Origin: Halorubrum sp. 2020YC2
GTDB taxonomy: Archaea; Halobacteriota; Halobacteria; Halobacteriales; Haloferacaceae
Assembly: GCF_018623055.1 (NCBI RefSeq)
Contig: NZ_CP076019.1
Location: 496,001 to 560,000 of the forward strand
Direction of reading: 5' to 3'
Length of the DNA stretch: 64,000 bases
This document shows, piece after piece, positions 28,163-64,000 of this stretch. Position numbers and translations under genes: made by a program. The notes beneath the pieces were generated by a model. It was not told where the DNA came from. It saw nothing but the letters and a program-made list of their open reading frames with translations, and ran no database searches. Position 1 is the stretch's first letter. Every line of letters starts with the position of its first letter.

Positions 28163-28415
28163 GCGGTGGCGCGTGCCTACGAGCGGCCGCCATCGGCGGC
28201 CGCGAGGAGCACGCGCGAGGGAGTCGGGCGGCCGGAGCAACGCGGAGGCCGGCCGACGAGGCTGGGGAGGCGTGAGGCTGTGGTGCTGTGCGGGGCGGGA
28301 CTCAAAGGGGCAGCCGCGAGGTCGCCGCAGACGACGCAAGCACCGCAGTAAGTGAGCGAAGCGAACGAACGAGGAGCGCAGCGAGTGTGCGGCGACCTCG
28401 CGGCTGGGGCTTTGG
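28163..28415 (+). repeat. Dispersed repeat module, copy A (noncoding)
   Basis: About 250 bp of GC-rich sequence nearly the same as the reverse complement of 52968-53235. Landmarks: GCGGTGGCGCG at 28163, a block starting GAGGCTGGGGAGGCGTGAGG at 28258, CGGGGCGGGACTCAAAGGGG, and a final GCGGCTGGGGCTTTGG (28400-28415). Inside it 28311-28329 and 28388-28406 form a perfect 19-bp inverted repeat with a 58-nt loop. It ends exactly at the first unit of the tandem array. All six frames are open over long stretches by virtue of composition, and the predicted peptides (Arg/Pro-rich) do not resemble haloarchaeal proteins, so I take it as noncoding. Confidence 0.75.
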
Positions 28416-28800
28416 AGGTGTTCGTCGCGGGACCGCTGGCAGCAATTTATAAGCGAGCGGCTGGGGCTTTGGAGGTGTTCGTCGCGGGACCGCTGGCAGC
28501 AATTTATAAGCGAGCGGCTGGGGCTTTGGAGGTGTTCGTCGCGGGACCGCTGGCAGCAATTTATAAGCGAGCGGCTGGGGCTTTGGAGGTGTTCGTCGCG
28601 GGACCGCTGGCAGCAATTTATAAGCGAGCGGCTGGGGCTTTGGAGGTGTTCGTCGCGGGACCGCTGGCAGCAATTTATAAGCGAGCGGCTGGGGCTTTGG
28701 AGGTGTTCGCCGTCGATCCGCAATCGACTATTTATAAACGAACGACTGGGGATTCGACAGCGATCACCGCAGAAACACAGATCACGTATCGCGCCGGTCC
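28400..28800 (+). repeat. Tandem array of 57-bp units, each with a TATA-like box
   Basis: Unit starts: 28400, 28457, 28514, 28571, 28628 (five near-identical units), 28685 (diverged after GGTGTTCG), and a degraded seventh at 28742. Each starts with GCGGCTGGGGCTTTGG and ends in TTTATAAGCGA or TTTATAAACGA, which looks like a haloarchaeal TATA box. The last, diverged part ends in GTTTAATAAGCG (28801-28812), the likely promoter of the SRPBCC gene at 28831. Units lack unique spacers, so this is not CRISPR. Confidence 0.9.
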
Positions 28801-37958: not shown

Positions 37959-39512
37959 TTACCCGTCCGCTTCGCCCGGTTCGTCTACCAGCTCGTCGGC
38001 GAACCCGGTGTAGCCCGCCGGCGTCAGCGCCTTCAGCTCCTCGCGGACCGACTCGTCGACGTCGAGTTCGTCGAACAGCTCGCGGAAGTCGTCCAGCGTC
38101 ACCGACCGGCCGCGCGAGAGCGCCTTCACGCGCTCGTAGGCCTCGGTGTCGCCCTCTCGGCGCAGGATCGTCTGGACCGCTTCGCCTATCACCTCGGGGG
38201 TCGCGTCCAGCTCCTCGCGCATCACCGCCTCGTTCGGGACGACCTTGCCGATCCCGTCGGCGGCCTTCGAGTAGCCGATGAGGCAGTGCGCGAGGGCGGC
38301 GCCGACGTTGCGCTTGACGGTGGAGTCGGAGAGGTCGCGCTGGAGCCGCGAGGTCGTCACGTAGTCCGCGAGGAAGGTGAGATCCGAGTTCGCCTTCGAG
38401 AGGTTCCCCTCGCTGTTCTCGAAGTCGATCGGGTTCACCTTGTGGGGCATCGTCGACGACCCCGTCTCGCCCTCGACGGCCTCCTGCCCGAGGTAGCGGT
38501 CGGAGACGTACAGCCACGCGTCCAGGTCCAGATCGAGCAGGACGTTGTTGACGCCCCGGAGCGCGTCGAACAGCGCGGCGAGGTCGTCGCAGGGGTTCAC
38601 CTGCGTCGCGAGCGCGGTGTGTTCGAGATCGAGGCCGCGCACGAACGACTCGGAGAACCCCCGCCAGTCGACGTCGGGGTAGGCGACGCGGTGGGCGGCG
38701 AAGGTGCCCGAGGCGCCCGCGAGCTTGCCGGAGAGGTCCTCGTTCGCGACGACGACCCGCCCCAGCGCGCGGCCGAGCCGCGCGGCGTACACCGCCATCT
38801 CCTTGCCGAACGTGGTCGGCGTCGCGGGCTGGCCGTGCGTGCGCGCCAGCATCGGCGTGTCGCGGTAGTCGTGCGCCAACTCGACCAAGGCGTCGCGCAC
38901 CTCGCGGACCGCGGGGACGATCACCTCGCTCACCGCGGGCTTGACGAGGAGCCGCTGCGCGAGGTTGTTCACGTCCTCGCTCGTCAGCCCGAAGTGGATC
39001 CACGGGTACAGCGACTCGGCGTCGTCGAGCGCGGCGTCGGTCTCCCCGCCGGTCCCGCCCTCGGCCAGTTCCGACAGCCGGACGCGGAGGAAGTACTCGA
39101 CCGCCTTCACGTCGTGGTTGGTCGCGTCGTACCCCGCGGCCCCCTCGGTCTCTAACTCCTTTATCAGTCGCGCGTCCTCGGCCGAGAACCCCTCGTAGAT
39201 CCCGCGGAGCGCCGCCTCGGTCGCCTCGTCGAACTCTATCGGCGTCACGTCGAGTCCCCCCAGCGCGAGCAGGTACTCGACCTCGACGCGGGTCCGGGCG
39301 CGCATCAGCGCGGCCTCGCTCGCGTACGGCGACAGCGGCGCGGTCCGGCCGGCGTAGCGGCCGTCGAGCGGCGAGACCGCCGCGAGCGGGTCCGAGCGCG
39401 ACAGTCCGGCGATGGCGTCGTCGGCCGCCGATCCGTCGTTGTCGGCCGCCGATCCGTCGTTGTCGGCCGCCGATCCGTCGTTGTCGGCCGTCGGGTCGGA
39501 GTCGTCGGTCAT
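37959..39512 (-). CDS. purB: Adenylosuccinate lyase
   Basis: 517-aa enzyme of the fumarase/aspartase superfamily. It cleaves SAICAR to AICAR and adenylosuccinate to AMP in purine synthesis. Visible motifs: SPLDGRYAGRTAPLSPY near the N-terminus, TSEDVNNLAQRLL, TPMLARTHGQPATPTTFGKE, and the family signature GSSTMPHKVNP. The N-terminus carries a 21-bp tandem repeat coding for DNDGSAA (three copies, about 39,420-39,495) that is absent from usual PurB and is probably a disordered linker. It is divergent from purN/purH (starts 167 bp apart). Confidence 0.95.
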   Translation of the reverse strand: MTDDSDPTADNDGSAADNDGSAADNDGSAADDAIAGLSRSDPLAAVSPLDGRYAGRTAPLSPYASEAALMRARTRVEVEYLLALGGLDVTPIEFDEATEAALRGIYEGFSAEDARLIKELETEGAAGYDATNHDVKAVEYFLRVRLSELAEGGTGGETDAALDDAESLYPWIHFGLTSEDVNNLAQRLLVKPAVSEVIVPAVREVRDALVELAHDYRDTPMLARTHGQPATPTTFGKEMAVYAARLGRALGRVVVANEDLSGKLAGASGTFAAHRVAYPDVDWRGFSESFVRGLDLEHTALATQVNPCDDLAALFDALRGVNNVLLDLDLDAWLYVSDRYLGQEAVEGETGSSTMPHKVNPIDFENSEGNLSKANSDLTFLADYVTTSRLQRDLSDSTVKRNVGAALAHCLIGYSKAADGIGKVVPNEAVMREELDATPEVIGEAVQTILRREGDTEAYERVKALSRGRSVTLDDFRELFDELDVDESVREELKALTPAGYTGFADELVDEPGEADG

Positions 39513-52689: not shown

Positions 52690-52983
52690 ATTCGATTGTG
52701 TCGCGGGATCGGATTGTCACTTATAAGTCCGATCGAACACGAACGCCCTCGAAGCCCCAGCCGCTAGTTTATAAATAATCGACGACGGATCAACGGTGAA
52801 CACCCACAAAGCCCCAGCCGCTCGTCAGTACGTGATCGATAATTCCGCGGTGACCACTTCCAAAGCCCCAGCCGCTCGTCAGTACGTGATCGATAATTCC
52901 GCGGTGACCACTTCCAAAGCCCCAGCCGCTCGTCAGTACGTGATCGATAATTCCGCGGTGACCAATTCCAAAGCCCCAGCCGC
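52690..52983 (-). repeat. Tandem array of 54/57-bp units (copy C, inverted)
   Basis: On the minus strand each unit begins with the same 16-nt core as the 28.4-kb array (here CCAAAGCCCCAGCCGC on plus). Cores at 52968, 52914, 52860 with near-identical 54-bp spacing, a variant at 52806, and a further one (CGAAGCCCC...) at about 52750, 57 bp away. The distal two, diverged units contain TTTATAAA/TTATAAG; the proximal homogenised units carry GAATTATCGATCACG instead. Confidence 0.85.
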
Positions 52984-53235
52984 GAGGACTCGCGTGACTC
53001 GCTGCGCTCCTCGGTCGCTCACTCCGTTCGCTCCCTGTGGTGCTTGCGTCGTCAGGCTTCGCCCTCGCGGCTGCCCCTTTGAGTCCCGCCCCGCACAGCA
53101 CCGCAACTGCACCTCACGCCTCCCCAGCCTCGCGGCTCGTTCGGGGCTCCCTGCGGTCGCCCCTCACTCACCGCGTCCCTCGCGCGTGCTACTCGCGGCC
53201 GCCAGGGGCGGCCGCTCGCAGGCGCGCGCCACCGC
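52968..53235 (-). repeat. Dispersed repeat module, copy C
   Basis: Reverse complement of 52968-53235 aligns over nearly its whole length with copy A (28163-28415), including the GAGGCTGGGG block, CGGGGCGGGACTCAAAGGGG and the final core. Inverted repeat 53063-53073 / 52977-52987 (11 bp) corresponds to the 19-bp stem of copy A. Apparent peptides in any frame are not acidic and are taken as shadows. Confidence 0.75.
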
Positions 53236-53311: not shown

Positions 53312-54558
53312 ATGGCTGACTTCGAGACCACGCCGGCGTTTCGCGGGTTAAAGAGCCGGGCGTCGGGACGCGTTCACGAGACCGCCGACGCGGCGGAAAT
53401 CGACGGCGACGAGCGGGCGCGCGGACTCGACCCCGCCTACGACTACGACGCGGTCGACCCGGACGACCTGTTCGACCCCGCGGCCCGCGGCGCGAGCGGC
53501 GACGCGCGGACCGCGCCAGCGACCGCACGAGGCCACTGGCGGTTCGACGCGCTCCTCCCCTTCCCGGCCGCGGACGCGCTCACCGCGGGCGAGGGCGGCA
53601 CGCCGCTCGTCGCCACCGACCGGCTCGCGGAGGAGCTGGACGTCGACGCCATGTACGTCAAAGACGAGGGGCGGAACCCCACGGGGACCGTCCTCGACCG
53701 CGGCCTCTCGCTCGCCGTGACCGCGGTGGCGAAACGGGCGGCCGAGGGGGCGGACGTCGAGCCGCTCGTCTGCGCCAGCCCCGGCAACGCCGGGCAGTCG
53801 ATGGCGGCGTACGCGGGGCGGGCGGACCTGCGCTCGTACTCCTTCGTCCCCTCGCGGTGCGCGTTCTCGAACAAGTCGATGACGAACGTCCACGGCGGCG
53901 AGATGCGCGTGGTCGGCGGGCGCTTCCCGGACGCCGCCGCGGCGGTCGACGAGCAGCTGGAGACCGAGTACGCCGACCTCGCGGAGTTCGCCACGCCGTA
54001 CCGCCACGAGGGCGCGAAGACGGTCGCCTTCGAACTCGTCGCGGACCTCGGGGACGCCCCGACGTCGTCGTCGTCCCGACCGGCTCCGGCGAGGTCGTCG
54101 CCGGCGTTTATAAGGGGTTCGACGAGCTCGACCGGGTCGGCGCGATCGACGGGACTCCGAAGGTCGTCGCCGCGCAGGCCGCCGGCTGCGCCCCGATCGC
54201 GGCCGCCGTCGAGCGCGGCCTCGACGAGCCGGAGCCGTGGGGCACGCCGGACACCATCTGCGGCGAGCTTGAGATCCCGGACCCCGCCGGCGGCGCCGCG
54301 GCGGTCGAGGCGGTCACCGAAAGCGGCGGGACCGCGGTCGGCGTCGACGACGACGACATCCTCGCGAGCGCGGTCGCCGTGGCGCAAAACGAGGTCGTCG
54401 AGATGGGCGCCACGGGCGGCGCGGCCCCCGCCGGCGCGTGGGCGCTCGCGGAGGACGGCTTCTTCGACGGCGACGAGACCGTCGTACTGCTCAACAGCGA
54501 CGCCGGCTTGAAGACGCCAGACGTCCTCCGCAGCCACCTGATGGGTCAGGGAATTTAA
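53312..54558 (+). pseudogene. Threonine synthase-like PLP enzyme with one-base frameshift
   Basis: The first frame (from ATG 53312) reads MADFETTPAFRGLKSRASGR, then GEGGTPLVATDRLAEE, the PLP-lysine region MYVKDEGRNPTGTVLDRG and CASPGNAGQSMAAYAGR to about 54,055. After that, the coding sequence continues one base out of frame: DVVVVPTGSGEVVAGVYKGF, then VAVAQNEVVEMGATGGA, to TGA-equivalent stop at 54558. A one-base loss near 54,055-54,063 (GACGCCCCGACGTC) explains it. Product would convert O-phosphohomoserine to threonine, or act on a related substrate. Genuine inactivation or sequence error cannot be separated here. Confidence 0.85.
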
Positions 54559-63003: not shown

Positions 63004-64000
63004 TCACGCACCGAGGCCCAGTAGACCGCCGACGCGCGCGGTCAGCGCGGCGACCGCGCGTTCGACGGACGGGCGGTCGCCGCCGTCGCCCGCGGCGTCG
63101 CCGCCGCTCGAACCGCCTCCGTCCCCGGACCCGTCTCCGGGGCCGGCCGGCGTGCCGGCCGATCCGTTACCAGAGTCGCCGGTCGACCCGCTACCCGAGT
63201 CACCGTCCGTCGCGTTCCCGCCCTCCGGCGGACCGGAAGCGGTCGACCCGTTCGCGGCGCCGGTCTCCGAGCCGTTCACTCCCCCCGCTCCGGAGGCACC
63301 GCCCGCTCCAGGACCGTCGGTCGAGCCGTTTTCGGGACCTCCTTCTGACGGTCCCGCGCTCCCGTTTCCGGGACCCGCTTCCGGCGGTCCCGCGCTCCCG
63401 TTTCCGGGACTCCCGGCGGACCCGTTTCCCGGCGGCCCGACGTCGCCCGGCGCTCCGGCGGACCCGTTCTCGGGGGGGCCGGCGTCGGCCGGCGGACCGC
63501 GCTCGGTCCCGTTCCCGGGCGGACCGCGCCGCTCCGGACCGACCGGGCCGCCGACGCCCGGGCCGGCCACGCCGCGGGCAATGGCGGCGACCTCGGGACC
63601 GCGGAGGTCGTTCGCGCGCTCTCGGAGGGTCGCCAGCCGCTCGTCGTCGACCCCGCGGTCCTCGCGGACGGCGGCGGGGAGCGAGGCGGACGCGTTCGCG
63701 CTCCGGTTCAGTCCGCGGGCGAGCGACTCGATCCGTGCGCTCGTCGTCGCCATCCGCGCGGCGTACGCCCCCTGACTCAACTCCCCGTCGGCGCGGCGCT
63801 CGCGGAGTTCCTCCTGCCGCCGCTCTAACTCCGCGAGGCGCTTCTCGGTCCGGTTCAGCCGCTCCGCGACCACGGCGGCGCGGCTCTCGTTCGTCTCGGC
63901 CTCCCGAAGCCCGACCTCGAACGCCCTCGACTCGACCTCTCCTTCTATCTCGGCGCCCTGAACGCCGACGACCCCGGCGAGGCGCTCACCGGGACTGAGG
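63004..64000 (-). CDS. DUF7096-like envelope protein (5' end outside window)
   Basis: At least 332 codons, running off the window's right edge. The N-terminal visible part is charged and helical (coiled-coil-like: TEKRLAELERRQEELRER), with LSPGERLAGVVGVQGAEIEG near the edge; the C-terminal part is a long Gly/Ser/Pro/Asn-rich low-complexity segment before a short hydrophobic end (VERAVAALTARVGGLLGLGA). Similar haloarchaeal proteins (DUF7096) sit beside HTH membrane regulators. Function unknown. Confidence 0.7.
   Translation of the reverse strand, partial: LSPGERLAGVVGVQGAEIEGEVESRAFEVGLREAETNESRAAVVAERLNRTEKRLAELERRQEELRERRADGELSQGAYAARMATTSARIESLARGLNRSANASASLPAAVREDRGVDDERLATLRERANDLRGPEVAAIARGVAGPGVGGPVGPERRGPPGNGTERGPPADAGPPENGSAGAPGDVGPPGNGSAGSPGNGSAGPPEAGPGNGSAGPSEGGPENGSTDGPGAGGASGAGGVNGSETGAANGSTASGPPEGGNATDGDSGSGSTGDSGNGSAGTPAGPGDGSGDGGGSSGGDAAGDGGDRPSVERAVAALTARVGGLLGLGA

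What the first reader, a model, noticed from the sequence alone, without database searches (positions are those of the whole stretch)
28163..28415. A ~250-bp noncoding module repeated inverted 25 kb away, possibly an undescribed haloarchaeal element family
Copy A (28163-28415) and the reverse complement of copy C (52968-53235) align along most of their length, with the strongest blocks around CGGGGCGGGACTCAAAGGGG and the terminal 16-nt core. Neither encodes plausible protein, has no transposase, and no obvious target-site duplication. Such conserved, mobile-looking noncoding DNA next to tandem arrays does not correspond to any element family I can name.
Basis: partly seen in the sequence, partly recalled or inferred. 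Interest (0 to 1): 0.85.

Follow-up and report, generated by a model that had tools for sequence, protein, structure and literature searches.

The report
Haloarchaeal fixed-site structured dispersed repeats
The two look-alike stretches belong to a family of at least about 150 copies, each about 250 bases long, that sits between genes throughout this salt-loving archaeon's chromosome and folds into a shape kept by paired mutations; copies sit at the same places in a related species while their inner parts have been shuffled, and I found no published description of the family, though not all literature could be searched.

Summary
Observation confirmed and enlarged. It is present in all 34 same-genus genomes of the first relatives search and at least 150 times in a second complete one. 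A shorter form, the P4 hairpin, occurs across haloarchaea and in none of the sampled phylum members outside the order. There is no Rfam match and no ORF or partner gene. Covariation is very strong: 98.4% of pair cells pair (27-43% when slid) and 37 of 55 pairs have double changes. G·T versus A·C pairs (233 vs 26) show that one strand folds. Four G-tracts meet at the foot of P4, a candidate G-quadruplex. The elements do not look mobile now: 15 of 30 copies tested in the second genome lie at sites shared with my partial set of copies, about what full sharing predicts. Yet the element carries no orthologue signal (75.0% vs 74.6% to random copies), and P1, P2 and the P4 tip vary almost independently: modules have most likely been exchanged. 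I read it as an undescribed REP/BIME-like class of structured chromosomal elements, probably acting as RNA; function is inferred.

The parts
28163..28416 (+). Copy A, whole element (about 254 nt), 5' to 3' on the + strand
   Evidence: 252 bits
28169..28218 (+). P1 hairpin (GCGCGTGC...GCACGCGC with tandem G.A step); 16 of 17 pairs have double changes
28223..28257 (+). P2 hairpin (GTCGG...CCGAC); recurrent exact alleles shared between loci and species
   Evidence: direct sequence reading
28258..28270 (+). Conserved unpaired GAGGCTGGGGAGG
   Evidence: invariant columns; 100 of 104 copies
28293..28310 (+). Conserved G-tracts GGG-C-GGG-ACTCAAAG-GGG (3 of 4 tracts of a candidate G-quadruplex)
28302..28414 (+). 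P4 hairpin arm, the only part shared by all haloarchaeal members; its foot holds a GGG/GGG internal loop
28406..28409 (+). Fourth G-tract, in the 3' strand of P4 (CTGGGGCTTTGG core)
28400..28751 (+). Downstream tandem array of 57-bp units, each starting with the core GCGGCTGGGGCTTTGG and ending TTTATAAGCGA; unit number differs between species
52967..53235 (-). Copy C, whole element, 5' to 3' on the - strand (5' end next to a threonine-synthase-like gene starting at 53312)
   Evidence: 202.7 bits
52740..52983 (-). Tandem array (54-bp units) on the 3' side of copy C

Best explanation
Shown: copies A and C belong to a haloarchaea-specific family of chromosomal, intergenic elements of about 250 nt (P1, P2, a G-rich linker, P4, then an optional tandem array) whose one strand is held to a complex fold by selection. 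The copies examined sit at the same positions and in the same orientation in a related species, while their modules assort almost independently. Inferred, high: modules are exchanged between the dispersed copies by gene conversion or short-tract recombination, which erases the orthologue signal without homogenising the pool. Inferred, moderate: the folded form works as RNA (a transcript, or part of a neighbouring transcript), and the four G-tracts at the foot of P4 close a G-quadruplex on the hairpin, favoured by the molar K+ of haloarchaeal cytoplasm, to make a platform for a host protein. In biological role I think it is closest to bacterial REP/BIME elements: a fixed boundary or RNA-stability element between transcription units, not a transposon.
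For: Copy number and spread. Fold: 98.4% paired, 37 of 55 pairs with double changes, 0/500 shuffles; 19 of 26 pairs in P4 across haloarchaea; z = -5.2. Strand specificity: (G.T 233 vs A.C 26 in P1+P4). G-tracts: 90 of 104 copies keep all four; a tract outside the search pattern kept in 118 of 126 loci. Fixed sites. No orthologue signal. Modules in near linkage equilibrium (P1-P2 r=-0.05, P1-P4 tip r=-0.12, against r=0.62 for the two strands of P4). Exact P2 alleles shared by unrelated loci and species. Intergenic in 40/40, only 3/40 between divergent genes. TATA-like box upstream in many copies.
Against: No transcript evidence could be obtained. The TATA-like box often lies only 12-15 nt from the element, so a start about 27 nt downstream would fall inside P1. 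Head-to-head P4 dimers 20-25 nt apart are awkward for an RNA gene with its own promoter. Most P4 tips are C(GNA)G triloops, a class known from general knowledge to be exceptionally stable as DNA. Gene context differs outside the genus (the divergent class is largest among fully resolved contexts), so a 3'-end role is not general. Saturation by fast compensatory change could mimic part of the lost orthologue signal.
Confidence: 0.5

Rival explanations
1. The same family works as DNA: the G-rich strand folds when single-stranded (replication, transcription bubble, cruciform), and the hairpin plus G-quadruplex is a site for a nucleoid, topoisomerase or recombination protein, which would also explain the frequent exchange between copies.
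For: C(GNA)G triloops and tandem G.A steps, head-to-head dimers with a partly palindromic linker, roughly one copy per 20 kb on both strands, no consistent gene context, module exchange.
Against: The multi-helix architecture with many conserved unpaired positions is more typical of RNA; strand-specific G.U tolerance fits RNA at least as well.
Confidence: 0.3
2. Old non-autonomous transposons (MITE, PATE or SMR-like) that amplified in a haloarchaeal ancestor and are now fixed, kept alike only by gene conversion.
For: Hundreds of dispersed copies, inverted dimers, absence at the copy-A site in G009 (L224); Haloquadratum has about 110-bp SMR-A and PATE repeats without target duplications (PMC3119063).
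Against: Compensatory changes throughout, shared sites across species, rarity on plasmids and absence from phages, no IS200/IS605 copy adjacent (the nearest is separated by other genes), no enriched transposase among neighbours.
Confidence: 0.17

Closest known systems
REP / BIME / REPIN elements of bacteria
   Same: Hundreds of intergenic, foldable, dispersed copies; inverted dimers occur; long vertical persistence; gene conversion has been proposed for REPs (general knowledge).
   Different: REPs are 20-40 bp with a GTAG or CGTC tag (PMC3733652); this element is about 110-260 nt with three arms, four G-tracts and no adjacent Y1 transposase.
PATE and SMR-A repeats of Haloquadratum walsbyi (PMC3119063)
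   Same: Haloarchaeal, short, no transposase, no target duplication; SMR-A about 110 bp with inverted ends, like P4 alone.
   Different: Those were defined as mobile (strain-specific insertions; PATE ends match IS605-type transposons). Here sites are shared between species and no IS605 link was found.
HEARO and other omega-RNA-type elements
   Same: Structured RNA-like elements that can be dispersed without a protein gene (general knowledge).
   Different: No Rfam similarity, no enriched nuclease among neighbours.
Halovirus HF2 class I intergenic repeats (PMC8707807)
   Same: 56-58-bp repeats with an AT-rich promoter motif, about the size of the array unit here.
   Different: The motif sequences quoted in the paper do not match; no phage record matches the element.

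Membership tests
Rfam families (any of 4227) | Covariance-model match | tested here: not met
   lenient E-value searches on copy A and 9 diverse loci: only tRNAs and chance hits
REP/BIME/REPIN | 20-40 bp palindrome with GTAG or CGTC tag | tested here: not met
   110-260 nt, conserved ends GGGYGGGACTGAAAGGGGC...GGGGGCTTTC
REP/BIME/REPIN | High-copy, intergenic, foldable dispersed repeat | tested here: met
REP/BIME/REPIN | Cognate Y1 transposase (RAYT) next to copies | tested here: not met
   three Y1 hits in the genome, none adjacent to an element
MITE / PATE / SMR | Recent mobility: sites differ between close genomes | tested here: not met
   15 of 30 copies in G061 at sites shared with 76 fetched own copies, near the maximum expected from partial sampling; strain-level data not tested
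MITE / PATE / SMR | Ends match a resident IS (IS200/IS605) | tested here: inconclusive
   no element match near the two intact Y1 genes; IS ends not delimited; HqIRS sequences not held
CRISPR array | Identical repeats with differing spacers | tested here: not met
   whole 54-57-bp units repeat, spacers included
Self-standing ncRNA gene family | Covarying secondary structure on one strand | tested here: met
Self-standing ncRNA gene family | Transcript | not testable with these tools
   no expression data available
G-quadruplex element | Four conserved runs of three or more G on one strand | tested here: met
G-quadruplex element | Quadruplex actually forms | not testable with these tools
   needs CD, DMS or NMR in molar KCl

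The most novel reading that the evidence does not exclude
Haloarchaea carry a very large prokaryotic family of paralogous structured RNAs: 150 or more loci per genome at fixed positions, each a hairpin-G-quadruplex RNA, whose modules recombine freely among loci so that the genome holds an allele pool instead of orthologous genes.
Probability: 0.3. Interest if true: 0.93.

Novelty: new variant of a known kind. Interest (0 to 1): 0.8.

Why it matters
More than 1% of the chromosome of a well-studied group of archaea may be a structured element family with no entry in Rfam. It combines three things rarely seen together: selection on shape, fixed positions across species, and near-free exchange of parts among dispersed copies. 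This makes dispersed gene conversion in polyploid archaea directly measurable and offers a natural hairpin-quadruplex for study in molar potassium. It also warns that spurious long ORFs and 'hypothetical proteins' may be called across these GC-rich elements.

Tried and rejected
rRNA- or known-RNA-derived: no Rfam match. Protein-coding: predicted genes overlap none of 40 copies; frames across copy A are taken to be GC-rich artefacts. CRISPR: whole units repeat. IS605/PATE: one element scored near a disrupted Y1 gene, but two other ORFs lie between. Partner gene: Pfam scan of 100 neighbours in other haloarchaea gave no enriched family; the four tRNA-endonuclease hits are one shared site in Natrinema/Haloterrigena. 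Species-wise homogenisation: within-genome identity is no higher than between-genome (0.776 vs 0.791), so simple concerted evolution was dropped for module exchange in a large pool. The TATA-like box as promoter of the whole element: spacing often too short. Collinearity counting of shared sites was only roughly informative (58 vs 29 of 132 at 5 kb). Orthologue search for the copy-C site failed twice on the server.

Full report
WHAT IS THERE. Copies A (28163-28416, +) and C (52967-53235, -) are real and related (80% identity, E=5.7e-59). A BLAST search of the window's own 3.06-Mb chromosome gave 40 full-length copies, its scoring cap. The 14-nt core at the 3' end has 197 exact occurrences against 1 for the reversed pattern. 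The arrays of 54-57-bp units lie always on the 3' side and begin with the same core that ends the element.

ANATOMY. Element 5' to 3': P1, a hairpin with a tandem G.A step; P2, a hairpin; conserved GAGGCTGGGGAGG; a G-rich linker; P4, a long arm whose foot pairs CAAAG with CTTTG around a GGG/GGG internal loop. On 104 copies, 98.4% of pair cells pair, against 27-43% when partners are slid; 37 of 55 pairs show changes on both sides; no shuffle reaches the observed values (this alignment was fitted to the structure, so it leans towards it). The unfitted MAFFT alignment of 34 copies already gave 24 pairs with double changes. In P1 and P4, G.T wobbles number 233 against 26 A.C, so the functional fold is on the strand read P1 to P4, although part of that total comes from two nearly fixed T-G columns. 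Copy A folds with z=-5.2.

G-TRACTS. In 90 of 104 copies four runs of three or more G are kept: GGG-N-GGG-ACTCAAAG-GGG ... CTGGGG. In other haloarchaea the 5'-most run, which was not part of the search pattern, is kept in 118 of 126 loci. The four runs can meet at the foot of P4, so a three-layer quadruplex is plausible in molar K+. This is inference.

DISTRIBUTION. All 34 same-genus genomes of the first relatives search match. G061, a single-contig genome, has at least 150 strong copies. Other haloarchaea range from 1 to 88. The part common to all is P4 alone: GGGYGGGACTGAAAGGGGC-[variable stem]-AAGCACCGCAG-[hairpin]-GAGGAGCGCAGCGAG-[stem']-GGGGGCTTTC, with double changes in 19 of 26 pairs. 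A P4 model matched 25 of the 30 listed genomes inside the order and none of the sampled phylum members outside it. Only 6 of 72,556 plasmid records and no phage record match.

POSITIONS ARE FIXED. At the copy-A site, between an ABC-transporter gene and an SRPBCC-like gene, the element is present in the same orientation in at least 12 other species, absent from G009, and the neighbourhood differs in G004 and G059. Genome-wide, 15 of the 30 best G061 copies have both flanks matching one of my 76 located own copies, about half of the own set, which is what nearly complete sharing would give. In Natrinema and Haloterrigena one copy sits between the same two genes in four genomes, with all stems different and all paired.

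BUT THE SEQUENCE IS NOT INHERITED WITH THE SITE. At those 15 shared sites the flanks mostly match at 84-94% while the element is 75.0% identical to its orthologue and 74.6% to a random copy; no segment shows an orthologue signal. Distances in P1, P2 and the P4 tip are nearly uncorrelated among own copies (r about 0 to -0.12, P1 against P2 or the P4 tip), whereas the two strands of the P4 stem correlate at 0.62. Exact P2 alleles recur at unrelated loci and in other species. Within-genome identity is not above between-genome identity. The simplest reading is short-tract exchange within a large pool of copies; very fast compensatory evolution could contribute.

CONTEXT AND FUNCTION. 40 of 40 copies are intergenic and only 3 lie between divergent genes, but outside the genus the divergent class is the largest of the fully resolved ones, so no single regulatory position explains the family. 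Copies less than 4 kb apart are convergent in 10 of 13 cases. Other haloarchaea often have head-to-head P4 dimers with a 20-25-nt linker. No transposase, nuclease or other partner gene was found. I judge an RNA-level element more likely than a DNA-level one (about 0.5 to 0.3) because of the multi-arm architecture with conserved unpaired positions; a purely selfish relic is least likely. None of this is a demonstration of function.

LIMITS. Copy numbers are lower bounds. The literature search covers open-access papers only, and the Haloquadratum SMR/PATE sequences could not be compared, so 'undescribed' is likely, not proven.

Noticed in passing
L104, L107, L134, L136, L147, L161, L205 (positions; sequences): A second, unrelated but conserved interior (roughly GGTCGTCTGAGCGACCCCTATC..GATATGTCGCTCAGCGACC) sits on the same P4 foot and G-tracts, mostly in Halorussus, Haladaptatus and Haloarcula relatives.
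   Followed up: partly
own genome, e.g. 596643+/597620- and 2638319+/2639560-: Element pairs closer than 4 kb are convergent, 3' cores facing each other, in 10 of 13 cases, usually 1-2 kb apart.
   Followed up: no
G085, G129, L112, L167, L193, L203: Head-to-head P4 dimers joined by a 20-25-nt, partly palindromic linker.
   Followed up: partly
window 28400-28751 and 52740-52983: Each tandem unit ends in a TATA-like TTTATAAG about 27 nt upstream of the conserved GGTGTTC tail, as if each unit carried a promoter; unit number varies between species.
   Followed up: no
L213, L218, L223, L225, L230: Extra hairpins inserted in peripheral loops of some copies, leaving the core fold mostly intact (disrupted in L225).
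   Followed up: no
window 39416-39508 and 63326-63579: Short in-frame-length tandem repeats (21 bp; 36-42 bp), probably repetitive proteins.
   Followed up: no
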